From a virus: DNA of 20,007 bases. Below are positions 3,839-20,007 of this stretch, piece after piece. A program made the position numbers and the translations under genes. Position 1 is the first letter of the stretch. Each line of letters starts with the position of its first letter. The notes under the pieces are model-generated. The model was given only the letters and a program-made list of their open reading frames with translations, did not search any database and was not told where the DNA came from. The stretch spans positions 1-20,007 of the IMG/VR virus record IMGVR_UViG_3300046321_000474; one strand, written 5' to 3'.

Positions 3839-4770
3839 GCGATCCTTTTGTAAAAGTTATAGCGCACTCATTATCACCTGATAATATACCTTTAATTACA
3901 ATTCATGCTCGTTATTGGCGAGCAATTCATGCGGAGGTCATGACACACCGAGTTTTTAGTAGAAATGCTAGATCTTCCCGAGCTGTACCTACAACAAAAA
4001 TGTTAGATGAAATTCTTAATGATCCTTTTATTCCCCGCCATTGGGGCAAAAATCAAAAAGGAATGCAAGCAGATGAAGAATGCAATTCCCCTGTTATTTT
4101 AAATCATTACATAGACGAAGATTTTACTCCGATAGAATCTACAAAAGAAGAAGCTTGGTTGATTGCAAGAGATTCTGCTTTGCATGTGGCGTCAGCTTTC
4201 GGTGATGCAGGTTACCACAAACAGGTGGTAAATCGTTTAGTTGAGCCTTTTATGTGGATTGATACTCTTATTACTTCAACACAATGGAATAACTTCTTTA
4301 TGTTACGAGATCATAAAGATGCGGAACCTCATATGCGAGATTTAGCTGTTTTAGCAAAGGAAGCTATTAATGCATCAACTCCTAGACAAGTGGGGCATTA
4401 CAATTGGCATATACCATATGTGTCCAACGAAGAACTGGTGAGTTTTGTAGGTGAAGGCCCTGGTGATTCAGAAATATATGACGGGTATGAAATAGCCTGT
4501 ATGGTGTCTGCTGCGCGCTGCGCTCGTATCTCGTATGCACCTTTTGATGGCAATTCTTCAATAGAAAAGGAGCTTGAGCGATATAAATTACTAACAAACT
4601 CTAATCCAATTCATGCGAGTCCTGTAGAGCATCAGGCCACCCCTGATTATTTTGATGACAAATATAAACAGTGGACCCACCCAGAAGAACATAGGAATTT
4701 TCATGGTTGGAGACAATTTAGAGCACAAATACCAAATGAAACTTCTTTTGACAGTTTCATTCAAAAATAA
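3835..4770 (+). CDS. thyX: Flavin-dependent thymidylate synthase (ThyX family)
   Basis: Makes dTMP from dUMP using methylene-tetrahydrofolate, FAD and NADPH in the cytoplasm, supplying thymidine for phage DNA. It has 311 residues. The key signature is MTHRVFSRNARSSRA near residues 36-50, the phage variant of the ThyX RHRxxSxxxxSxR loop that binds dUMP and flavin. Further family features are WNNFFMLRDHKDAEPHMR around 154-171 and a second-half CARISY/HASPVEHQATP segment that contributes to the dUMP site. The start is fixed by the four-base overlap with the preceding small ORF. The next gene, ribonucleotide reductase, follows after 14 bases, and a dUTPase lies at 18051. Together they form a dNTP supply set. 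The THR in place of the usual RHR is the only deviation I see. Confidence 0.93.
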   Translation: MSDPFVKVIAHSLSPDNIPLITIHARYWRAIHAEVMTHRVFSRNARSSRAVPTTKMLDEILNDPFIPRHWGKNQKGMQADEECNSPVILNHYIDEDFTPIESTKEEAWLIARDSALHVASAFGDAGYHKQVVNRLVEPFMWIDTLITSTQWNNFFMLRDHKDAEPHMRDLAVLAKEAINASTPRQVGHYNWHIPYVSNEELVSFVGEGPGDSEIYDGYEIACMVSAARCARISYAPFDGNSSIEKELERYKLLTNSNPIHASPVEHQATPDYFDDKYKQWTHPEEHRNFHGWRQFRAQIPNETSFDSFIQK

Positions 4771-4784
4771 TAAAAAGGAAATTA

Positions 4785-7565
4785 ATGAAAGATACTAAAC
4801 AACTATTATCTGATGCAAAATTTTACGAAGGTTATTCGCGTTGGGATGATGACAAGCAACGTTATGAAACCTGGGACGAATCTGTTGACAGGGTAATGAA
4901 CATGCATCGTTCTTATTATAAAAATAAGATGACGAATACTATTGAAGGTTTGATTGAAGAAGTTACAAAAGCATATAAAGAAAAAAGAGCATTGGGGGCG
5001 CAAAGAGCTCTTCAATTCGGCGGTGATCAATTGCTTCGACATCCATTGAAGCTCTATAACTGCCTCGGTTCATATGCAGATCGTCCTGAATTTTTTGGTG
5101 AATATTTTTATTCTCTTCTTTGTGGCTGTGGCTTCGGTTTTTCAGTTCAATCTCACCATATTTTGAAACTTCCCAATATTCATCTTCGCTCCAAACAACC
5201 AAAAACACATGTTGTAGAAGATTCTATAGAAGGATGGGCTACCTCTTTAGATGTATTGATGTCTTCTTATTTTGTAAGGGGCGGTAGACATCCCGATTTC
5301 GAAGGAAGAAAGGTATATTTCGATCTAACTAATATTAGACCCAAGGGTTCTAAGATTTCAGGAGGTTTTAAGGCCCCTGGTCCCGAGCCGCTCCGTGCAG
5401 CTTTGGATAAAATTGAATATATTTTACAAGGGGTTGCACTCAAAAAAAATCAAAAATTGAGTTCTGTCCAAGTTTATGATATATGTATGCATACTGCCGA
5501 TGCAGTCATTTCTGGAGGTGTTAGGAGATCTGCAACGATTTGCTTATTCTCTCCTGATGATGTTGAAATGGCGAACGCAAAAACGGGTAACTGGTTTATT
5601 GACAATCCTCAGAGAGCTCGTTCCAATAATTCAGCATTGATTGTGAGAAAAAACATTACAAGAGAGCGTTTCCATGAACTTATGCAAACAATCAAGCAAT
5701 TCGGAGAACCTGGATTCTATTTTGCAGAATCGACGGAACATGCCACTAATCCTTGTTTGTCGGGAGATACATGGGTGACCACAAAGGATGGTCCAAAACA
5801 AATATCAACAATAATAGAAGAATATAAAAATACGGAAGATAAAACTATTGAGATACTTGTGGATGGTGTTTTTAGAAAAACAACTTCAAGAGGTTTCTGG
5901 GAAACCTCTTCTGATTCAAAATTGTATGAATTAACATTGTTTAATGGTATGAAAATCAAAGCAACAGAAAATCATCAATTTTTGTCTAAAGACGATTGGG
6001 TCGAATTAAAAGACCTTGCAATAGGCGATGAAGTTTTCTTATCTGAAAATAATTCAAATATCGCATGGGAAGGATCTGGAGGGTCAAAGGAACAAGGTTG
6101 GCTGATAGGAAACCTTATAGGAGACGGCACTTTTAATTCTGATGATAGTTGCAAATGGTCGTTTTGGGGAGATTCTAAAACAGAAATGCAAAAAAAATGT
6201 AGTATTTTGTTGGAAGAATTAAAAGTCTCAAATATTGTTTCTCAAAATTACGGAAATGAAACACATAAAGACTTTTTGAATGTTTCTTCAACTAAATTTG
6301 TCCCTACTCTCAAAGAATGGGGTGTTAAAAGAGGAGATAAACATATAAATCCTATTATTGAAACTGGTTCTACTGATTTTTATAAAGGCATAATCGGAGG
6401 GTTTTTTGACGCTGATGGTTGCGTAACGGGGAGCAATAAGACAGGTTTGTCTGCAGTTTTTACCCAAATCTATAAGGAAAGCTTAGAAATTCTGCAAAGA
6501 ATGTTATCCAGAGTAGGTATTCAATCTAAAATTAGAAAATCTAGAGCATCAGGTTTCACTCTTCTTCCTGATGGTTTAGGGGGCAAAAAATTATACCCAA
6601 CACAAGATTGTTATGAATTGAGGATTACAGGAAGAGAAACTGTTTCAAAGTTGTTCAGTTTTATGTACTCTTTACATCCCGAAAAGAAAGAAAAATATGT
6701 TAAATTGATTTCCGAATATAAAAAGAACCCCTATAACAATGATAATAATACTTCTCAGATAGTAAAAATAGAATACATGGGTAATGGTCCGGTATATGAT
6801 TGTACAGTTCCCGAAACTTCAGCTTTTGATGCCAATGGTATATATGTTCATAATTGCGTGGAAATTAGTTTTTTCCCTCAATTGGAAGGAGTTACGGGCA
6901 TTCAAGGATGCAATTTGACTGAGATAAATGGTTCGCTTTGTGTTGATGAAGATTCATTTTATTTGGCTTGCAGAATTGCAACCATATTGGGCACATTGCA
7001 GGCAGGTTATACTAATTTTGATTTTGTATCCGAAACTACCAAAAAGATTTTTGAAAGAGAAGCCTTGTTGGGAGTATCTATTACAGGTTGGATGAACAAT
7101 CCTGATATTTTATTCAATGAAACAATCCTCAAAAAGGGTGCTAAGATTTGCAAAGAAGTTAATGCTGAAGTTGCAAAATTGTTGGGTATTAATGCGGCCG
7201 CAAGAATTACTTGCACCAAACCCAGCGGTAATGCGTGTTTGGGGTTTGATAGTCGAATAAAAACAGAGTTAGGTGATATGACTTTAGAGGAAATCTTCAA
7301 TTTCATATCAAATAATCAGTTTGATCTTAACACTGCTTATGAAAATCAAACATTATTTTCAGAAAAATCTTTAAAAGTTTACGATGAAAATAATGAACTA
7401 CAAACCATTAAAGGGGGTTTTGTTAATGGGTACGATGATTCTTATGAAGTAGAATTTGAAGATGGGGGAGTGTTTATGTTTACGGGTAAACATAAACTTA
7501 AAACTACAAAGGGGTGGAAAATGGTCTCCGATCTTTTAGAGAGTGATGTTGTAATAAGTTACTAA
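4785..7565 (+). CDS. nrdJ: Class II ribonucleotide reductase, N-terminal part, with one full intein and an N-terminal split intein
   Basis: The first 817 of 926 residues, minus the first intein, form the N-terminal body of an adenosylcobalamin-dependent ribonucleoside-triphosphate reductase. This enzyme converts NTPs to dNTPs. Early conserved blocks include ETWDESVDRV, GGDQLLRHPLKLYNCLGSYADRP, GCGFGFSVQ and SGGVRRSATICLFSPDD. Residues 324-690 are a complete intein placed directly before the Cys of NPCVEI, the expected thiyl-radical Cys of this class. Residues 818-926 are an intein N-half inserted in the conserved KPSGNA/S motif, and the gene then stops. The remaining reductase is encoded at 8531-9508. 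Extein total is 323+127+285, or 735 residues, very near the family's usual size, so both splicing events are needed for an intact enzyme. AAGGA precedes the start at 4785. Confidence 0.93.
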   Translation: MKDTKQLLSDAKFYEGYSRWDDDKQRYETWDESVDRVMNMHRSYYKNKMTNTIEGLIEEVTKAYKEKRALGAQRALQFGGDQLLRHPLKLYNCLGSYADRPEFFGEYFYSLLCGCGFGFSVQSHHILKLPNIHLRSKQPKTHVVEDSIEGWATSLDVLMSSYFVRGGRHPDFEGRKVYFDLTNIRPKGSKISGGFKAPGPEPLRAALDKIEYILQGVALKKNQKLSSVQVYDICMHTADAVISGGVRRSATICLFSPDDVEMANAKTGNWFIDNPQRARSNNSALIVRKNITRERFHELMQTIKQFGEPGFYFAESTEHATNPCLSGDTWVTTKDGPKQISTIIEEYKNTEDKTIEILVDGVFRKTTSRGFWETSSDSKLYELTLFNGMKIKATENHQFLSKDDWVELKDLAIGDEVFLSENNSNIAWEGSGGSKEQGWLIGNLIGDGTFNSDDSCKWSFWGDSKTEMQKKCSILLEELKVSNIVSQNYGNETHKDFLNVSSTKFVPTLKEWGVKRGDKHINPIIETGSTDFYKGIIGGFFDADGCVTGSNKTGLSAVFTQIYKESLEILQRMLSRVGIQSKIRKSRASGFTLLPDGLGGKKLYPTQDCYELRITGRETVSKLFSFMYSLHPEKKEKYVKLISEYKKNPYNNDNNTSQIVKIEYMGNGPVYDCTVPETSAFDANGIYVHNCVEISFFPQLEGVTGIQGCNLTEINGSLCVDEDSFYLACRIATILGTLQAGYTNFDFVSETTKKIFEREALLGVSITGWMNNPDILFNETILKKGAKICKEVNAEVAKLLGINAAARITCTKPSGNACLGFDSRIKTELGDMTLEEIFNFISNNQFDLNTAYENQTLFSEKSLKVYDENNELQTIKGGFVNGYDDSYEVEFEDGGVFMFTGKHKLKTTKGWKMVSDLLESDVVISY
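5754..6854 (+). other. Intein 1 with LAGLIDADG homing endonuclease, in nrdJ
   Basis: A contiguous intein of 367 residues. It begins with Cys1 in the CLSGDTWV block A and shows a TENH block B (in MKIKATENHQF). It carries two LAGLIDADG-type motifs, LIGNLIGDGTF and GIIGGFFDADG, and ends in a block F/G of VPETSAFDANGIYVHN followed by extein Cys. The +1 Cys belongs to NPCVEI, the catalytic-Cys motif of the reductase. The first LAGLIDADG acidic position (GDG) and the second (DADG) are both intact, so the endonuclease may be active. All splicing residues (C1, B-block H, penultimate H, terminal N, C+1) are present, so self-splicing is expected. Confidence 0.92.
7236..7562 (+). other. Split intein 2, N-terminal half (IntN)
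   Basis: The last 109 residues of the first nrdJ gene. It begins with Cys1 of CLGFDSRIKTELGD (block A) right after extein KPSGNA and contains block B as FTGKHKLKT (T and H in TxxH spacing). It ends with a short hydrophobic strand, DVVISY, just before the stop. Length and blocks match IntN pieces of naturally split inteins such as the NrdJ and gp41 types. Its partner IntC starts at 8531. Confidence 0.9.
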
Positions 7566-7567
7566 AC

Positions 7568-7621
7568 ACATGTGGTAAACCAACAATTTTGATAAATAAA
7601 ATTAAAAGGTTTACCACATGT
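7568..7621 (+). promoter_or_regulatory. Start-codon hairpin of GIY-YIG gene
   Basis: A perfect 14-bp inverted repeat, ACATGTGGTAAACC at 7568-7581 and its complement at 7608-7621, with a 26-base AT-rich loop. The right arm contains the ATG (7618) of the GIY-YIG gene and overlaps its weak AAGG binding site (7606-7609). In an mRNA read through from nrdJ this stem would hide the start. Comparable hairpins control T4 homing endonuclease genes such as I-TevI. Confidence 0.75.
7591..7598 (+). promoter_or_regulatory. Late-promoter-like GATAAATA in hairpin loop
   Basis: GATAAATA differs by one base from the T4 late promoter TATAAATA and lies in the loop of the start hairpin. A transcript begun about six bases downstream (near 7604) would lack the left arm and leave the start free. 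The motif is seen. The use of a gp55-type late sigma by this phage is unproven. Confidence 0.35.
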
Positions 7622-8562
7622 CACAAAATTGTTATGTCTATTTTATTAAAAATATTACTACTGGAAAAAAATATATAGGGTCTAAATATGCGAAAAATGC
7701 AGACCCTTCTTTTTTTTGGGTTAATTATTTTACTAGTTCAGCTTTTGTATCAAAATTGATTGAAATTTATGGTAAATCAGATTTTAAATTTAAAATCTTA
7801 AAATGTTTCGGTGAAAATTCAAAAAATTGTTTAGATTATGAAAGAAACTTGCTTAAATTTGCGGTAAAAAGAAAAGATTATCTTAATCTGCGATATAATT
7901 TTGCGGGAACAGGAAATTTGTCTGAAAAAGAAAAATACATGATTAGAATAAAAATAGGATCCTTTTGTGGTAAAGAGTCGTTTAAGAATAAAACCGGGTT
8001 TCACAAATTTTTAGGAAAAGAGAAATTTGATATATGTTCTTCAGGTGGAAAAGCTGCAGCGAAGATCAATAAAAAATTAGGAAGAGCAATATTTGATCCG
8101 GAAGTCAGAAAAAGACAACATATCACATTAAAAGAAAAGAAGGTTTCTGCTTTTTATAATCCCTTGACTAGAAAAGATATAGGGCGTATGGGGGGATTAA
8201 GAGGTGCGTTTTCTAAAGAATATTATGCTAAAATGGGTCTTTCAGAAGAAGACAGAATTGAAAAACAAAGGGAAAGAGGTCGCAAAGGTGGAATACATAA
8301 TAAAGGATGTATTGCATGTAATGATGGAGTAAATAATCTGAAATTTACTGCTAAAATGCAAAAAATAGAAACGATTGAAGAATTCTTAATAAGAAACCCC
8401 GATATTAAATTGGGTCATTTGCCAAGAAAATCGAGAACTTGGGTAAATAACGGCGTAAAAAATCTATTCATTTATCCTGAAGAAGTTACGCAGGAGCATT
8501 TTAAAGGAAGGCTAGGAGATAGAAAGAAATATGGTAAAAGAAACAAAAATAAAATCAATTAA
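7618..8562 (+). CDS. GIY-YIG homing endonuclease between split intein halves
   Basis: A 314-residue free-standing homing endonuclease. The GIY-YIG core is at the N-terminus: YVYF (6-9), KKYIGSKYA (17-25), a W/YFTSS segment (34-41) and the metal-binding Glu in LDYERNLL (E75). The C-terminal region is basic. It carries two similar segments, NDGVNNLKF near 235 and NNGVKNLFI near 277, probably DNA-contacting repeats. It lies exactly in the break between IntN and IntC of nrdJ, and its last 32 bases overlap the IntC gene. This fractured-gene layout is known for phage and metagenomic split inteins. Its likely target is the uninterrupted or unsplit nrdJ allele, so it would spread the whole cassette. 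The start codon is within a stable hairpin, so expression is probably held back early. Confidence 0.9.
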   Translation: MSQNCYVYFIKNITTGKKYIGSKYAKNADPSFFWVNYFTSSAFVSKLIEIYGKSDFKFKILKCFGENSKNCLDYERNLLKFAVKRKDYLNLRYNFAGTGNLSEKEKYMIRIKIGSFCGKESFKNKTGFHKFLGKEKFDICSSGGKAAAKINKKLGRAIFDPEVRKRQHITLKEKKVSAFYNPLTRKDIGRMGGLRGAFSKEYYAKMGLSEEDRIEKQRERGRKGGIHNKGCIACNDGVNNLKFTAKMQKIETIEEFLIRNPDIKLGHLPRKSRTWVNNGVKNLFIYPEEVTQEHFKGRLGDRKKYGKRNKNKIN

Positions 8563-8650
8563 AAGAATTAAAAACTTCCAGTTCACAGGCGATATTGAGA
8601 TAGAAAATACACACTCATATCAATTAAGCAACGGTGTCGTTTCTCACAAC
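8531..8650 (+). other. Split intein 2, C-terminal half (IntC)
   Basis: The first 40 residues of the second nrdJ gene. It starts MVKETK and ends with block F/G, DIEIENTHSYQLSNGVVSHN, followed by extein Ser+1. The penultimate His and terminal Asn are present. The size of about 40 residues and the Ser+1 match naturally split NrdJ-type inteins. Joined with IntN it would give the uninterrupted extein KPSGNA-SVLLKTASGIHPEH. Confidence 0.9.
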
Positions 8651-9508
8651 TCAGTACTCCTTAAGACGGCAAGCGGTATACATCCGGAACATGCTCCGAT
8701 GTATTTAAGAACTGCCCAGATGAATAAAGAATCTGAGGTTGCACAATTGTTGAAGAAAACAAATCCTCATATGGTTGAAGATTCTGTATGGAGCGCAAAC
8801 AAGACGGACTACGCAATCTCATTTCCTGTTATTTCTCCAAAAGGTTCAATATTCAAGGATGATCTTTTGGGGGTAAAGCATCTTGAACTTGTGAGAAAAG
8901 CTCAAAAGTTTTGGGTAGAAGAAGGAACCAATGTTGAATTATGCGTAGAAAAATCAACAAGACACAACATTTCTAATACTATTGTTGTGGACGATTGGGA
9001 TGCTGTTGAAGAATACGTTTTTGAAAACCGTGATTCATTTTCTGGAGTTTCTTTCCTTGCTATGTCAGGAGACAAAGATTATGTTCAAGCACCTTTCACA
9101 AAAGTAATTGACGCAAAGGAAATTACTAAAACGTACGGCAATGGTGGCATTTTTGCATCGGGATTAGTTGTAGATGCATTGAAGGCCTTCAATAATGATT
9201 TATGGGCGGCATGTGCAACAGCAAACGGGTTCGGAGAAGATATTACAAGCGATGATAATATCAATCTTTTGAAAAAAGATTGGGTTCGTAGGTTTATTAA
9301 ATTCTCAAAAAATCATTTTAAGGATGATTTGAAAAAAGCAGAATATTGTCTCAAAGATGTTTATAATCTTCATAAATGGGAGAAGATACAACAAAACTTG
9401 GTCGATATTGATTGGATCAATGAATTGCATGAAAAGAAATTTATAGACATTTCAACAACCGGTTCTGCTGCATGTGTGGGTGGTTCGGAAGAAGGTTGCT
9501 TTGTATGA
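8531..9508 (+). CDS. nrdJ: Class II ribonucleotide reductase, C-terminal part, with split intein C half
   Basis: A 325-residue protein. Residues 1-40 are IntC and residues 41-325 are the C-terminal reductase. The extein starts SVLLKTASGIHPEHAPMYLRTAQ, the conserved PSGxxS...SGIHPxH region of B12-dependent reductases. It ends CVGGSEEGC plus FV, the C-terminal redox Cys pair that passes electrons from thioredoxin or glutaredoxin to the active site. The start at 8531 is supported by AGGAG at 8514-8518 and lies inside the end of the GIY-YIG gene. This piece is inactive alone. Trans-splicing with the product of 4785-7565 is needed to give one chain of about 735 residues. That explains why the stop at 7563 is not a simple disruption. 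Confidence 0.93.
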   Translation: MVKETKIKSIKRIKNFQFTGDIEIENTHSYQLSNGVVSHNSVLLKTASGIHPEHAPMYLRTAQMNKESEVAQLLKKTNPHMVEDSVWSANKTDYAISFPVISPKGSIFKDDLLGVKHLELVRKAQKFWVEEGTNVELCVEKSTRHNISNTIVVDDWDAVEEYVFENRDSFSGVSFLAMSGDKDYVQAPFTKVIDAKEITKTYGNGGIFASGLVVDALKAFNNDLWAACATANGFGEDITSDDNINLLKKDWVRRFIKFSKNHFKDDLKKAEYCLKDVYNLHKWEKIQQNLVDIDWINELHEKKFIDISTTGSAACVGGSEEGCFV

Positions 9509-12748: not shown

Positions 12749-13831
12749 GATTTAAGTTATTTTGTTGATTGTGCGTTAGAGTGCAATGATATAACTCCTG
12801 ATATATATTGGTATCTTACATTATTTGAGCATGATCCAATTAACATATTGGATAACTTGTCTAATTTTGACTTCAAAAAAAGTCACAGTCATAATTTATT
12901 CAGATCTTGTGATACTCTTGAGGCACTCATCTTTAATATTAAAGATTCAACCGCCAAAAGGTACCTAAATGCAATAGGCGATTCTCATATCAATTCTTGC
13001 TTGAAAGAAGTTATAGGTGCTTGTTCTTCGGACATATTTGTCAACAAAGAAATTCCTTCAAAAAACGAGATAATTTTTTCAATTAATAAATCTTTTGATA
13101 AATATTTCTTTGATGAAAGATTAGGCAGGCAAAAAAGAGCACAAAAAAGAAATGATAAAAGCATTTCTTTTCAAGATGCCTTTAATGCTTTGCATATGAA
13201 TTATAATCAAAGAGCGAAAGACATTCAACAAAAACTTATATCAACAAATCATAGTGATGTCATAGAGTGGAATGACACAGCTTTAGTTTCAGCTCGAAGG
13301 AATAATACCTCCAATCTTTTAACTCCCTTAAATATGAGGACTAAAAAGAAGACATTGAAGAAAAGTCTGGCTCTTGCAGAAAGTGTCATATCTAAAAATG
13401 ATGTGAAAATGTTTTTGTCAGGAAAAGAGATAATCATCGAGGGTCAAGAAAATATATTTAAACTGACAAAAACATCTGCATTATCAAATTCCCACGGGGG
13501 AACAAAATGCTCAGTATTTTCTAAACAAAATGAAAGACAATTTGATCTTTGCATATACAGTGAAGATGCTCCGGTATTGGATCATTTGACAAGCATTTAT
13601 CTGCATATTAAATCTGGTCTTGAATCTGAATTATTGTCAATTGGCAACAAATATAATTTCGAAAATGAAACCGCAAAAGAAATAAATGAATTATTCAATC
13701 GAATGGAAAATTCTCCTCCCTTTCTGTTAAATTATAAAACTATTATTAAAAGAACTTTTCCTCGAGAGTATAAAAAGATTATAAAGTTGATTTATGAAAA
13801 GGTTTGTGACATATCTGGATTGCATTGTTAA
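12728..13831 (+). CDS. Hypothetical protein (367 aa)
   Basis: A 367-residue soluble protein with a strong ribosome site (AAAGGAGG) six bases before the ATG. The N-terminal third is acidic and aromatic-rich. The middle (about 125-220) is basic with RLGRQKRAQKRN and a segment MRTKKKTLKKSLALAESVI. The C-terminal third has beta-like strands around HGGTKCSVFSKQNERQFDLCIYSEDAPVLDHLTSIYLHIKSG. That last pattern, with its Cys, Glu, Asp and His residues, looks conserved and might be enzymatic, but I cannot name a family. It ends 17 bases before pnuC and may share a transcript with it. Confidence 0.7.
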   Translation: MVGFLPPDLSYFVDCALECNDITPDIYWYLTLFEHDPINILDNLSNFDFKKSHSHNLFRSCDTLEALIFNIKDSTAKRYLNAIGDSHINSCLKEVIGACSSDIFVNKEIPSKNEIIFSINKSFDKYFFDERLGRQKRAQKRNDKSISFQDAFNALHMNYNQRAKDIQQKLISTNHSDVIEWNDTALVSARRNNTSNLLTPLNMRTKKKTLKKSLALAESVISKNDVKMFLSGKEIIIEGQENIFKLTKTSALSNSHGGTKCSVFSKQNERQFDLCIYSEDAPVLDHLTSIYLHIKSGLESELLSIGNKYNFENETAKEINELFNRMENSPPFLLNYKTIIKRTFPREYKKIIKLIYEKVCDISGLHC

Positions 13832-13848
13832 TAACAAAGGACTTTATT

Positions 13849-14505
13849 ATGAAAAATTTACATGCCTTCCTTGTTTCATTTATATTGACTATTTTGACTT
13901 ATGCAATTGCATATTTTAATAAATGGGTTGATTTATCATCTCTCAATTATATTGAGCTGTTTGCTGTGTTTACATCATATGCTTCAACTTATTTGTGTGT
14001 TGTGCAATCGAGACACAATTATATATGGGGTGCAATTTCGGTTGTATTGTATTCCTGGTTATTTTATAACATCGGTTTGATTTCTTCCACAATTCTAAAC
14101 TTATATTTGTTTCCTGTTTTATTGTGGGGTTGGTTTAGATGGCGGTCAGATTCATACACCCGACCTGTTACTTTCGTTGCGATGAAGTGGTGGCCTATGT
14201 ATATCACATTCGCTGTTGCAGTGTGGTTTATTTTAAATTATATAACAAATTCAATGAATGCCGCTCTCCCTGTAACTGATTCTGCAATTCTTATTCTTTC
14301 AATATTGGCACAATCTTTGCTTGATCAAAAGAAAATTGAAACCTGGGCTATATGGTTTGCGGTGAATGTGTTTGCAATTTACACATATTACAATTCTGAA
14401 TTATATATGGTTGCATTGCAATATGTGGTTTTCTTGATGAATACTTTATATGGAACATACGCATGGATTAAGACCATGGGAGACAAAGAAATTGAAACAG
14501 TATAA
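13849..14505 (+). CDS. pnuC: PnuC-type nicotinamide riboside transporter
   Basis: A 218-residue inner-membrane protein with about seven hydrophobic helices. It would let nicotinamide riboside enter by facilitated diffusion. PnuC hallmarks are the YIELFAVFTSYASTYLCVVQSRHNYIWGAISVVLYSWLFY region (E..A...Y..L..R.N...WG......LY), the LLWGWFRWRS segment and the C-terminal TWAIWFAVNVFAIYTYYNSELYMVALQYVVFLMNTLYG. ATG 13849 is preferred because AAAGGA lies 10 bases upstream; the frame is open from 13825 inside the previous gene. The next gene, a NadR-like NMN adenylyltransferase/riboside kinase, overlaps its end. This is the usual PnuC partner and supports the assignment. Confidence 0.92.
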   Translation: MKNLHAFLVSFILTILTYAIAYFNKWVDLSSLNYIELFAVFTSYASTYLCVVQSRHNYIWGAISVVLYSWLFYNIGLISSTILNLYLFPVLLWGWFRWRSDSYTRPVTFVAMKWWPMYITFAVAVWFILNYITNSMNAALPVTDSAILILSILAQSLLDQKKIETWAIWFAVNVFAIYTYYNSELYMVALQYVVFLMNTLYGTYAWIKTMGDKEIETV

Positions 14506-15559
14506 TAGAGCTTTCGTGTATATGTCTGCAATATTGCCTACAACGGGACACATTAATTTGATCAAATTCGCCGCAGAGTGTGCCAATTCAGTGCATGTTC
14601 TTGTGAGCGAAACAAAGAATGAACCGTCAAAAGTTCAAGAAAGAATTGCTGCTTTAAGTTTAGATTTTAAATCAACAAGTTCGGTGAATTTCATACTACA
14701 TTATGATCCTGATGCTCCTCAGTTCCCATCGTCAGATGACGATTTTGATTTTTGGGAATATTGGAAAAACACACTTTACGTTGCTCCTCCCGCAGCGAGT
14801 GACGTGCTTATTGGCTCTCAAGAATACATTATTCCTTTCGCTAAACATCTTGGTTGTAGTTTTATTGTTTATGATATTGGAAGACAAATAAATTCTGCAA
14901 GAGGAACAGAATGTAGACAAAATATCGGAAAACATTTTGATAAAATTACTTCTGCATTTCAGCAAAAATTGAATACTCGAGTAGTTTTTTTTGGTCCCGA
15001 ATCTTGCGGAAAAACTACAACTGCTAAGCTGTTTACTGGGCGTGGCAAAGGAACGTTTGTTCCTGAATGGGCCCGGGAGTATCTTGAAATGCCCAGAATT
15101 GGACCGAAAGTTACTGACGAAAAAATGAAGGCAATCGCCATAGCTCAACATGCTTTGGAAAAACATGCGGAAAAAAACCTTGTGAGTAAACCATTTACTT
15201 TTTTCGATACTGATATTATATCAACTTGGGGATATATGAAGTTATGGGATAAAACATTTTCTTTGCGCACAAATCATGTTATAAATGATATAATTATGCG
15301 AGATTTTGTAAATAAGGATATATATATTCTTATGAGTGATCGTATCCCCTTTGAGCCTGATATTTTAAGATATGGGGGCAATAAAAGAGAATCTAATTGC
15401 GAATATTGGAAAAATATTCTTGACATTTTTTCCTTGCCTTATTATGAAGTCAAATCAACAGATAAAACCTCACAATTATATGAAATTGCTGAAGTCTGTG
15501 AAAATATTCAACTTGAAAAATACAAATCTTTTTCTGAATTTGGCAGGCCGTTACAATGA
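14492..15559 (+). CDS. nadR: NadR-like bifunctional NMN adenylyltransferase / nicotinamide riboside kinase
   Basis: A 355-residue enzyme with two domains. The N-terminal nucleotidyltransferase (to about 160) shows AFVYMSAILPTTGHINLIKFA (the GxxxPxHxGH-like site, here PTTGH) and the INSARGTECRQN segment that corresponds to the ISxTxxR motif. The C-terminal P-loop kinase has Walker A GPESCGKTT (168-176) followed by VPEWAREYLE, typical of NadR. The kinase phosphorylates nicotinamide riboside to NMN and the transferase makes NAD+. There is no HTH repressor domain, as in other phage versions. The TTG at 14492 follows GGGAG (14478-14482). An ATG at 14450 would add 14 residues but lacks a binding site. 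Position 14522 would cut into the active site. Confidence 0.9.
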   Translation: MKQYNRAFVYMSAILPTTGHINLIKFAAECANSVHVLVSETKNEPSKVQERIAALSLDFKSTSSVNFILHYDPDAPQFPSSDDDFDFWEYWKNTLYVAPPAASDVLIGSQEYIIPFAKHLGCSFIVYDIGRQINSARGTECRQNIGKHFDKITSAFQQKLNTRVVFFGPESCGKTTTAKLFTGRGKGTFVPEWAREYLEMPRIGPKVTDEKMKAIAIAQHALEKHAEKNLVSKPFTFFDTDIISTWGYMKLWDKTFSLRTNHVINDIIMRDFVNKDIYILMSDRIPFEPDILRYGGNKRESNCEYWKNILDIFSLPYYEVKSTDKTSQLYEIAEVCENIQLEKYKSFSEFGRPLQ

Positions 15560-18471: not shown

Positions 18472-18500
18472 TTGACATTATATGTATCATAATGTAATAT
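18472..18500 (+). promoter_or_regulatory. Sigma70-like promoter after dut
   Basis: A perfect TTGACA (18472-18477), a 17-base spacer and TAATAT (18495-18500). Start would be near 18507, giving an 83-base leader before the ATG at 18590. Confidence 0.65.
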
Positions 18501-18506
18501 AAAAAT

Positions 18507-18589
18507 TAGGAATGAATACAGCAAAACTTTCAAATTTGGCTAGAATATTGGTTCGCCAATAGTCGAGGTTCTTATACCTAGAATAAGAT
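18507..18589 (+). promoter_or_regulatory. Structured 5' leader with UUCG hairpin
   Basis: A 6-bp stem TATTGG/CCAATA at 18546-18561 closed by a TTCG tetraloop is followed by AGGT/ACCT and CTTAT/ATAAG pairings close to the start codon at 18590. The leader has no good Shine-Dalgarno sequence. It may stabilise the mRNA or control translation. I do not recognise a known riboswitch. Confidence 0.35.
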
Positions 18590-18922
18590 ATGTGTTTTGG
18601 TGCTGACAGTTACACGAAACAAAAAATGCACCGATCATTCCGTTTAATTAGGAGAATAGTTTTGCCTAGAAGAAAAGAAGTTGAATATGTTATAGAACCT
18701 TATAAAAATGGGTTTGATCAAGAAATTACTCCGGGAACTCCTGTATTATTCATGGGAACATCCCGCAAAGTCACAAGTCACAAGTCCGGAAATTATGCTG
18801 GTGTTTATAAGATTGACAACAAAGTAATTTCTATTAAGATAGAAAACGTGCCAAGATTTAGTTGGCAAAAAAGAACATATGCAATTTTGCCATTAAAACG
18901 AGCATTTGTTCTTTCAAAATAA
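18590..18922 (+). CDS. Hypothetical basic protein (110 aa)
   Basis: A 110-residue basic protein starting MCFGADSYTKQKMHRSF. The first 35 residues are rich in Arg and Lys (RLIRRIVLPRRKEVEY). The rest looks like a small beta barrel: EITPGTPVLFMGTSRKVTSHKSGNYAGVYKIDNKVISIKIENVP, a KOW or SH3-like pattern of short strands. An RNA- or DNA-binding role is possible but only by composition. It is transcribed from a clear promoter at 18472 through a structured leader. An internal ATG at 18626 is an alternative start. It is eight bases upstream of the tRNA-like RNA. Confidence 0.6.
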   Translation: MCFGADSYTKQKMHRSFRLIRRIVLPRRKEVEYVIEPYKNGFDQEITPGTPVLFMGTSRKVTSHKSGNYAGVYKIDNKVISIKIENVPRFSWQKRTYAILPLKRAFVLSK

Positions 18923-18930
18923 AAAGTTTT

Positions 18931-19045
18931 AGGTTCACTACAGCATAAATCTCATTTTTTCATAAAAAAGGGGCCCGAGTTCGAATCTCGGCGTCTGCGA
19001 AGGCAGATGTGGTGTAGAGGATAGCACGTAAGAGCATGTGAACCT
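18931..19045 (+). ncRNA. Circularly permuted tRNA-like RNA, candidate YrlA-type Y RNA
   Basis: Elements in 5'-3' order. An outer strand AGGTTCAC (18931-18938) leads into a region with a TTTT-TTCATAA-AAAA hairpin (18955-18969) that looks like an anticodon arm. Then comes a T arm CCGAG-TTCGAAT-CTCGG (18975-18991), an acceptor 3' strand CGTCTGC (18992-18998), loop GAAG, and an acceptor 5' strand GCAGATG (19003-19009). TG and a D arm GTGT-AGAGGATA-GCAC with G18G19 (19012-19027) follow. The outer strand GTGAACCT (19038-19045) pairs with the first. TTTT just before (18927-18930) can also pair with AAAA at 19049-19052 around a bulge. So the tRNA elbow is complete but the order of halves is reversed and the acceptor is closed by a tetraloop. 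Bacterial YrlA Y RNAs have this tRNA-like module plus an end-closed Ro60-binding stem, and a Ro60-like gene follows at 19153. Confidence 0.75.
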
Positions 19046-19078
19046 GTTAAAATAAGAATAAGTTCAGCAATAAAAAAC

Positions 19079-19092
19079 GCGGGTAATCCCGC
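19079..19092 (-). terminator. Hairpin resembling a minus-strand intrinsic terminator
   Basis: GCGGG (19079-19083), loop TAAT, CCCGC (19088-19092). On the plus strand it is preceded by an A-run (19072-19077) and not followed by T, so read on the minus strand it is a compact stem followed by GTTTTTT. It may block antisense transcription, or be a structured element of the Ro60 leader. A second small hairpin CACAT/ATGTG lies at 19106-19120. Confidence 0.4.
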
Positions 19093-19152
19093 TCCAGTGT
19101 GACAACACATAAAACATGTGAAAAATTATTCTGTAAATTAAAGGAAAATAAT

Positions 19153-20007
19153 ATGAACACTTTTGTTAACAATATTAATAATCAAGAAGTAAAAACCTCA
19201 AATGGCATGAAAGCTCTGAACTCAACATCTTCAATGTGTGTCGATTTGTTTTTCAATATAGGTGCTTCTCGCGGCAAAGATATTGTTCCGGGCTTTCTTG
19301 CTGCATATAATGAAAATCCTGATTATGCATTACGCATTGCTCAATGGGTGCGTGATGTTCGCCAAGGCGCAGGTGAACGCAAAATCTTCCGTGATATTTT
19401 GTTAGAAACAGAACGCAAGGATCCAGATGCTGCAATTGCTTTGTTAAACAATGTCCCTGAATTAGGACGTTGGGATGACCTATTGATTGATTTCAAAAAC
19501 CCTGCGGTAAAGAAATATGCTTTCAACATGATAAAAGATGCTTTGGCTTCTGGAAACGGGCTTGCAGCAAAATGGATGCCCCGCAAAGGGCCAAAGGCTG
19601 CTGAACTGAGGTTATTCTTGGGTTGGACCCCAAAACAGTATCGTAAAACTTTGGTTAATTTGACTAAAGTTGTTGAAACACATATGTGTGCAAAAGATTG
19701 GGATAATATTAATTTCAATCATGTACCATCTGTAGCTGGCGCTCGCTACAAGAAGGCATTCAATCGTCATACCCCAAAGTATGCTGAATGGGCCGCCAAG
19801 TTGATATCTACGGATCCTGAAGTTTCGGCTTCAGTCAAGGTGAATGCGGGTGCTGTATATCCGCATGATGTATTAAAAGGTTTTAATAGATATTATACAC
19901 CTTCTGACGCTAAATTGAACAATATTCAAGGACAATGGGATGCTTTGCCAAATTTTATGGGTGAAGGTGTTAATGTAATGCCTATCTCTGATGTTTCAGG
20001 TTCTATG
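19153..20007 (+). CDS. Ro60-like protein (TROVE/DUF2828 with vWA domain), N-terminal part
   Basis: The first 285 residues of a larger protein that continues beyond the window. ATG 19153 follows AAGGA (19141-19145). Residues about 25-120 are helical repeats (VDLFFNIGASRGKDIVPGFLAAYNENPDYALRIAQWVRDVRQGAGERKIFRDIL, then LGRWDDLL). They continue with WMPRKG, ELRLFLGWTPKQYRKTLVNLTKVVETHMCAKDWDNINFNHVPSVAG and AVYPHDVLKGF, the signature series of DUF2828 proteins, relatives of the TROVE domain of Ro60. The last residues, ISDVSGSM (D280, S282, S284), begin the vWA metal site (DxSxS). Ro60 proteins are rings that bind Y RNAs and misfolded RNAs in quality control. The Y-RNA-like gene directly upstream supports such a role here. 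Confidence 0.88.
   Translation, partial: MNTFVNNINNQEVKTSNGMKALNSTSSMCVDLFFNIGASRGKDIVPGFLAAYNENPDYALRIAQWVRDVRQGAGERKIFRDILLETERKDPDAAIALLNNVPELGRWDDLLIDFKNPAVKKYAFNMIKDALASGNGLAAKWMPRKGPKAAELRLFLGWTPKQYRKTLVNLTKVVETHMCAKDWDNINFNHVPSVAGARYKKAFNRHTPKYAEWAAKLISTDPEVSASVKVNAGAVYPHDVLKGFNRYYTPSDAKLNNIQGQWDALPNFMGEGVNVMPISDVSGSM

What the first reader, a model, noticed from the sequence alone, without database searches (positions are those of the whole stretch)
18931..20007. Ro60-like gene and tRNA-mimic RNA as a two-gene phage module
Seen: the RNA ends 107 bases before the start codon of a DUF2828/TROVE-vWA protein. Known: in bacteria, Ro60 (Rsr) and Y RNA genes are neighbours and form ribonucleoproteins, some with the exonuclease PNPase. 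Inference: the phage carries its own RNA quality-control or RNA-decay particle, perhaps to steer host rRNA/tRNA degradation late in infection or to withstand RNA-damaging defence. DUF2828 proteins in phages are usually listed as unknown, so an adjacent Y RNA would give them a function.
Basis: partly seen in the sequence, partly recalled or inferred. Interest (0 to 1): 0.82.

Follow-up and report, generated by a model that had tools for sequence, protein, structure and literature searches.

The report
Phage Ro60-like protein with Y-RNA array
This phage carries a relative of the RNA-binding Ro60 protein next to three small RNAs, one folded like an inside-out tRNA, and the same kit with its own RNA signature recurs in many phages and some bacteria, so a poorly understood phage gene family gains a likely RNA partner.

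Summary
18931-19045 encodes a Y-RNA-like transcript: the ends pair (AGGUUCAC/GUGAACCU) around a permuted tRNA module (T-arm, closed acceptor stem, D-arm, plus an anticodon-like arm). It lies upstream of a DUF2828 gene whose modelled fold matches only Ro60 structures across both domains.

All share a stem signature, AG-N5-N3-CAGCAA...N5-CU-GU. It recurs upstream of DUF2828 genes in phages and bacteria (72/81 IMG/VR contigs, 17/25 bacterial contigs, 9/25 phage isolates), often in arrays of up to seven. CAGCAA within 1.2 kb upstream carries the stem in 195/282 sites, against 0/34 on the other strand. Canonical TROVE/Rsr loci share the tRNA module but, where a motif was found, have a different one (CGAAUGC).

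Phage Ro60-Y RNA pairs are already known in outline (Chen 2014, not readable here). What appears new: a DUF2828-specific Y-RNA class, its position against the Shine-Dalgarno (58/103 loci), and tRNA genes carrying the same stem opened at the acceptor. RNA binding and function are inferred, not shown. Verdict: real; a new variant of a known kind.

The parts
18472..18500 (+). sigma-70-like promoter TTGACA-17-TAATAT, 8 nt before the first Ro-stem RNA
   Evidence: consensus match; such matches are not enriched over shuffles in the region, so only the position is suggestive
18509..18641 (+). candidate Y-like RNA no. 1: Ro-type stem GGAATGA...TCATTCC-GTTT with CAGCAA; no recognisable tRNA module
   Evidence: descriptor score 17.5, fold z -1.7; the weakest of the three
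18662..18922 (+). small ORF (86 aa, TTG start, SD-like AGGAG just upstream), unknown function, between RNA 1 and RNA 2
   Evidence: read; no Pfam match; an ATG start at 18590 would overlap RNA 1
18931..19045 (+). Y-like RNA no. 2 with permuted tRNA module (the RNA of the finding): outer stem AGGUUCAC/GUGAACCU followed by GUU
   Evidence: model R1 50.7 bits (this sequence was in the seed)
18941..18946 (+). conserved CAGCA(A/U) motif after the 5' strand of the outer stem
   Evidence: 195/282 CAGCAA sites upstream of DUF2828 genes have the stem; opposite strand 0/34
18955..18969 (+). anticodon-like arm UUUU-UUCAUAA-AAAA (CAU loop)
   Evidence: 7 of 23 such RNAs have an arm of this form against 0.09 expected
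18970..18974 (+). variable-loop-like GGGGC (relatives mostly AGGUC)
18975..18991 (+). T-arm CCGAG-UUCGAAU-CUCGG
   Evidence: covariation in relatives
18992..19009 (+). acceptor-like stem CGUCUGC-GAAG-GCAGAUG, closed by a loop
   Evidence: all six counted pairs covary in relatives
19012..19027 (+). D-arm GUGU-AGAGGAUA-GCAC
19055..19132 (+). Y-like RNA no. 3: stem AGAAUAA...UUAUUCU-GU with CAGCAA, internal GCGGG-UAAU-CCCGC hairpin; ends 20 nt before the start codon, against the Shine-Dalgarno
   Evidence: fold z -3.75; 58/103 relatives have such an element 10-31 nt before the start codon
19153..20007 (+). Ro60-like protein gene (DUF2828; first 285 aa, includes the start of the vWA MIDAS motif DVSGSM), open at the contig end
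   Evidence: fold of a full-length relative (66% identical) matches Ro60

Best explanation
The locus encodes a phage Ro60-type ribonucleoprotein. A DUF2828 protein with a Ro60-like HEAT-ring plus vWA fold is made next to Y-like RNAs that it binds through a shared stem (7-8 bp, N3, CAGCAA). One RNA carries a circularly permuted tRNA body that presents a tRNA elbow and an anticodon-like loop. Most likely mechanism (inferred): as in Deinococcus Rsr-Y RNA-PNPase, the stem docks on the protein while the tRNA-like body recruits or blocks a tRNA-binding enzyme, so the particle changes RNA decay or repair in the infected cell. The stem placed against the Shine-Dalgarno of the protein's own message probably lets free protein sense RNA supply and limit its own translation. 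Shown: RNA structures and their conservation, linkage, predicted protein fold. Inferred: binding, recruitment, autoregulation, benefit to the phage.
For: Stem descriptor: 289 plus-strand against 22 minus-strand hits, shuffles about 13 per strand. Motif-first test: 195/282 upstream CAGCAA sites have the stem, opposite strand 0/34, most control motifs about 2-8% (CTGCAA 31% and CAGCAG 25% look like variants of the motif). 21 of 117 long stem RNAs contain the permuted tRNA core, against 0.06 in shuffles. Covariation of the core: 98.5% of cells paired, 81 double changes against 21. The core model finds the RNAs beside canonical TROVE genes at 54-68 bits though none was used to build it. Fold: four Foldseek hits at E<=1e-3, all Ro60/TROVE; Z 11.4-17.1 for all ten Ro60 entries, against 9.9 or less for single-domain vWA matches. 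Stem against the Shine-Dalgarno in 58/103 loci, control 0.5%. In Listeria phage CKA15 the homologue CKA15_055 was found in purified particles (PMC12282133).
Against: No binding, expression or phenotype data for this phage. 11 of 25 phage isolates have no stem RNA within -1.5 to +3 kb at the threshold (KVP40-like, several Straboviridae, jumbo phages), so the RNA is not strictly needed beside the gene, or lies elsewhere. No TROVE match by sequence even at E<=10. The most abundant non-coding RNA of CKA15 (26,236-26,727) is not one of the stem RNAs, which map to 25,290-25,552. The effector is unknown.
Confidence: 0.8

Rival explanations
1. Decoy: the tRNA-like RNAs, with anticodon-like loops, soak up host anticodon nucleases or other tRNA-targeting defences, and the Ro60-like protein only stabilises or displays them.
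For: Anticodon-like arms with varied loops in 7/23 RNAs; many of these loci are next to phage tRNA genes; the authors of PMC7790460 suggested that the YrlA tRNA-like domain could act as a competitive inhibitor of an anticodon nuclease.
Against: Most stem RNAs have no tRNA module at all (21 of 238 do), so a decoy role cannot be the common function; in PMC7790460 YrlA was not a substrate of the nuclease.
Confidence: 0.2
2. Mainly cis-regulatory: the stems are leader and operon elements bound by the protein to control its own mRNA, with no separate particle.
For: A stem ends 10-31 nt before the start codon in 58/103 loci, control 0.5%; the stem RNAs are mostly on the gene's strand and upstream.
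Against: Arrays of up to 7 RNAs, RNAs up to 3 kb away or downstream of the gene (L019, L021, L028), tRNA modules and CCA-ended forms are not needed for a leader switch.
Confidence: 0.12
3. Remnants: the RNAs are decayed tRNA genes or chance hairpins in a tRNA-rich region.
For: Phage tRNA genes are close by in many loci; real tandem tRNA genes do cross-hit the core model below about 45 bits.
Against: Compensatory changes, strand bias and stem test, conservation in mycobacterial, enterobacterial, Listeria, Enterococcus and Sinorhizobium phages and in bacterial contigs.
Confidence: 0.02

Closest known systems
Bacterial Y RNAs of the YrlA type with Rsr (Chen et al. 2014 RNA 20:1715; Sim and Wolin reviews; known here from memory and from citing papers PMC12282133, PMC7790460)
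   Same: Ends pair to form a Ro-binding stem; a tRNA-like module in permuted order; gene next to a Ro60-type gene; the module matches the RNAs beside TROVE genes L136, L138, L139, L141, L142.
   Different: Stem motif CAGCAA instead of the CGAAUGC-type motif counted at four of eight TROVE loci; partner is DUF2828, not TROVE; arrays of up to seven; a stem against the Shine-Dalgarno; some members as CCA-ended tRNA genes with the stem inserted.
Ro60 / Rsr (TROVE, PF05731), including the Ro60 structure from Thermus phage phiLo (PDB 9l5y; 9kop is titled only 'Trove domain')
   Same: HEAT-like ring plus vWA domain with MIDAS; best and only full-length structural matches.
   Different: About 13-16% identity; no Pfam TROVE match up to E=10; no TROVE match in ten bacterial genomes that carry DUF2828.
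DUF2828/DUF7788 proteins (PF11443, PF25043), phrog_850
   Same: This protein is a member.
   Different: Listed as domains of unknown function; no held paper mentions DUF2828 together with phages.
Listeria phage CKA15 ncRNAs and CKA15_055 (PMC12282133)
   Same: The homologue there was called Rsr-like and Y RNAs were suspected nearby.
   Different: The stem RNAs located here (25,290-25,552) are not the paper's top region 26,236-26,727.

Membership tests
Bacterial Y RNA, YrlA subfamily | encoded next to a Ro60-type gene | tested here: met
   RNA 107 nt upstream; linkage across loci; partner has a Ro60 fold
Bacterial Y RNA, YrlA subfamily | 5' and 3' ends pair to form the Ro-binding stem | tested here: met
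   8-bp stem in the window, conserved in relatives; that it binds the protein is not shown
Bacterial Y RNA, YrlA subfamily | tRNA-like module in the order T-arm, acceptor, D-arm | tested here: met
   same model finds the RNAs beside TROVE genes
Bacterial Y RNA, YrlA subfamily | recognition-stem motif of the RNAs beside canonical TROVE genes (CGAAUGC type) | tested here: not met
   0 in all DUF2828 loci; 2-5 copies in four of eight TROVE loci
Bacterial Y RNA, YrlA subfamily | binds the Ro60 protein in cells | not testable with these tools
   needs CLIP or gel shift
TROVE (PF05731) Ro60 family | match to the TROVE sequence profile | tested here: not met
   no TROVE hit at E<=10 for five DUF2828 proteins; profile against PDB reaches a TROVE chain only at E=0.058, over part of the vWA domain
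TROVE (PF05731) Ro60 family | Ro60 fold: HEAT-like ring plus vWA domain | tested here: met
   model of a full-length relative, pLDDT 84; Z 11.4-17.1 to ten Ro60 entries over about 390-405 residues
TROVE (PF05731) Ro60 family | MIDAS metal site DxSxS...T...D | tested here: met
   D280, S282, S284 of the window protein invariant in the family; T352 and D384 in the relative
DUF2828 (PF11443) | Pfam profile above cut-off | tested here: met
   77.8 bits against a cut-off of 29
Rsr-Y RNA-PNPase degradation machine | RNA tethers PNPase to the protein | not testable with these tools
   no interaction data

The most novel reading that the evidence does not exclude
DUF2828 proteins are a second Ro-type family with their own Y-RNA class, marked by stem-N3-CAGCAA. 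The same tRNA-plus-Ro-stem fold is encoded in two circularly permuted forms: closed at the acceptor (as in this window) and opened at the acceptor as a tRNA gene, usually CCA-ended, with the Ro stem inserted between D-arm and anticodon arm. A copy of the stem in the mRNA leader controls the protein's own synthesis.
Probability: 0.5. Interest if true: 0.78.

Novelty: new variant of a known kind. Interest (0 to 1): 0.62.

Why it matters
Phage DUF2828 genes (681 phage records match the protein) are annotated as hypothetical or just 'RNA-binding'. A shared RNA signature gives them a testable partner and lets anyone find the RNAs by a simple pattern. The two topologies would bear directly on how tRNA-mimic Y RNAs arose from tRNA genes. 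DUF2828 is also reported in plant proteins (held papers), so a Ro-like role for the fold would raise the question whether those bind RNA too (speculation).

Tried and rejected
Rfam at gathering and relaxed thresholds found no family for the RNA; the one weak antisense leader hit was discarded. Single-sequence phmmer against PDB gave only a spurious match. Minus-strand core hits 'TGGGT TTCAACA ACCTT' recur inside the DUF2828 gene itself and were set aside as a conserved coding artefact. Core hits next to ordinary tRNA genes (L038, L039, L070, L088) are tandem tRNA junctions, not Y RNAs; the core model cross-hits these below about 45 bits. A relaxed search found no convincing stem RNA near the gene in most of the isolates that lacked one; L007 has a short stem with CAGCAC in its leader. 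The idea that the most abundant CKA15 ncRNA is a Y RNA of this class was rejected from coordinates. The Chen 2014 paper and the 2020 review are not held, so prior description of the CAGCAA motif could not be excluded.

Full report
What is there. The window is an IMG/VR virus record that ends inside a DUF2828 gene starting at 19153. Upstream, 18931-19045 folds as an outer 8-bp stem (AGGUUCAC/GUGAACCU, followed by GUU) enclosing a T-arm, an acceptor-like stem closed by a 4-nt loop, and a D-arm, in permuted tRNA order. A purpose-written scanner gave score 41; no hit that high occurred in 11.25 Mb of dinucleotide-shuffled sequence. ARAGORN and Rfam do not report it.

More RNAs than reported. Comparing RNAs near related genes showed a shared outer-stem signature: AG-N5, about 3 nt, CAGCAA, then after the insert N5-CU-GU. 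A descriptor of this stem finds three RNAs in the window: 18509-18641, 18931-19045 and 19055-19132. The last folds well (z -3.75); the first is near threshold and folds only moderately (z -1.7). A sigma-70-like promoter lies 8 nt before the first RNA, but such matches are not enriched in the region.

How general it is. I collected DUF2828 loci from 25 phage isolates, 81 IMG/VR contigs and 25 bacterial contigs. The descriptor gives 289 hits on the gene's strand and 22 on the other, with about 13 per strand expected from shuffles. Because the descriptor itself demands pairing, I also asked the question motif-first: of CAGCAA sites within 1.2 kb upstream, 195 of 282 have the stem, against 0 of 34 on the opposite strand; unrelated control hexamers run at about 2-8% there, while the variants CTGCAA (31%) and CAGCAG (25%) are raised. 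Per locus, a stem RNA lies within 1.5 kb upstream in 72/81 IMG/VR, 17/25 bacterial and 9/25 isolate loci (14/25 isolates within -1.5 to +3 kb); minus-strand controls over -1.5 to +3 kb are 7, 1 and 4. Many IMG/VR loci are close relatives of one another, so these counts are not independent events. Isolates without one include KVP40-like, several Straboviridae and jumbo phages.

The tRNA module. Of 117 non-redundant stem RNAs with an insert of at least 60 nt, 21 contain the permuted core; shuffling the inserts gives 0.06. On 18 aligned cores 98.5% of cells pair, with 81 double-sided changes against 21 in shuffles and a covariation score of 0.87 against 0.22. Those cores were chosen by a scanner that requires pairing, so the percentage paired is partly built in; the variety of pair types is not. 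A covariance model of the core finds the RNAs beside canonical TROVE genes (L136, L138, L139, L141, L142) at 54-68 bits although none was in the seed. In 7 of 23 cores an anticodon-like arm (7-nt loop YUNNNRN) precedes the T-arm, against 0.09 expected; the window's is UUUU-UUCAUAA-AAAA.

The protein. Full-length relatives match DUF2828 plus DUF7788 and, weakly, vWA profiles, but not TROVE even at E<=10. A model of the 66%-identical relative L029 (45-sequence alignment, pLDDT 84) has four Foldseek hits at E<=1e-3, all Ro60/TROVE. In the VIA-align second look all ten Ro60 entries score Z 11.4-17.1 over about 390-405 residues, the highest being 9kop ('Trove domain') and 9l5y (Ro60 of Thermus phage phiLo); the next rows align only the vWA domain at Z 9.9 or less. 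So it works structurally like Ro60 without being a sequence member of TROVE.

Two Ro systems. TROVE was sought in 398 genomes of one phylum and found in eight. Their RNAs share the tRNA module but, in four of the eight loci, carry a CGAAUGC-type motif in 2-5 copies, which is absent from every DUF2828 locus; the CAGCAA descriptor gave only two hits in the eight TROVE loci, neither with the AG...CU-GU context. Ten bacterial genomes with DUF2828 have no TROVE match.

Open-acceptor forms. In L004, L005, L014, L015, L098, L106 and in the Breznakiella homolactica chromosome (L128), tRNA-like genes in normal order carry the same stem inserted between D-arm and anticodon region, closed by a GNNA-type loop in most cases and followed by N3-CAGCAA or a variant (CTGCAA, CCGCAA, CAGCAT). 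Most end in CCA; L014 and L128 do not show it. L015 has two open forms followed by a closed, permuted one whose acceptor loop contains ACCA. The two forms are circular permutations of one fold. A tandem array of open forms would read as a closed form across the junction, which suggests a route of origin (inference).

Position at the start codon. In 58 of 103 loci a stem RNA ends 10-31 nt before the DUF2828 start codon, directly before the Shine-Dalgarno; random minus-strand positions give 0.5%. This suggests translational feedback (inference).

Literature. Jumbo-phage Ro/TROVE proteins have been noted (PMC7824862), as has a Ro60 relative in a Vibrio jumbo phage (PMC7765460). PMC12282133 found CKA15_055 of Listeria phage CKA15 in purified particles (20 peptides, 57% coverage) and suspected nearby abundant RNAs of being Y RNAs. 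The stem RNAs here are identical in CKA15 at 25,290-25,552; the paper's most transcribed region, 26,236-26,727, corresponds to L017 1489-1980, a different RNA without the motif. Chen et al. 2014, which from memory reports Y RNAs near Ro60 in many bacterial and phage species, is not held.

Verdict. The locus is a phage Ro60-type RNP operon, a new variant of a known kind. Binding, effector and benefit remain to be shown.

Noticed in passing
L004 about 4570-4840; L005 4893-5125; L015 4896-5138; L014 2630-2745; L098 about 815-935; L106 about 1547-1676; L128 about 2815-2930: tRNA-like genes in normal order with a Ro-type stem inserted between D-arm and anticodon region; some are annotated as tRNA-Ser, tRNA-OTHER or pseudo-tRNA of 113-121 nt.
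   Followed up: partly
L017 1489-1980 (Listeria phage AG20; CKA15 26,236-26,727): Structured RNA of about 490 nt without Rfam match, reported as the most transcribed region of CKA15; a TTGACA/TATAGT promoter-like pair lies just upstream.
   Followed up: partly
L009 1859-2987: Array of seven stem RNAs upstream of the DUF2828 gene of Aeromonas phage LAh_9.
   Followed up: partly
L010 and L024, leader of the DUF2828 gene: KVP40-like phages keep GACATTTTACAGCA(A/T) just before the start codon but no 3' partner strand was seen.
   Followed up: no
L050 1197-1315: A normal-order tRNA-like sequence lies inside a Ro-type stem, a third arrangement.
   Followed up: no
window 4785-9508: Class II-like ribonucleotide reductase gene with an intein (LAGLIDADG) and a GIY-YIG endonuclease ORF within the split gene region.
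   Followed up: no
window 13825-15559: Overlapping genes for an NMN transporter (PnuC-like) and an AAA_28 protein resembling NadR: a likely NAD-salvage pair.
   Followed up: no
L129 / L145 (Tumebacillus lacus): Chromosomal DUF2828 gene with one in-frame TAG stop.
   Followed up: no
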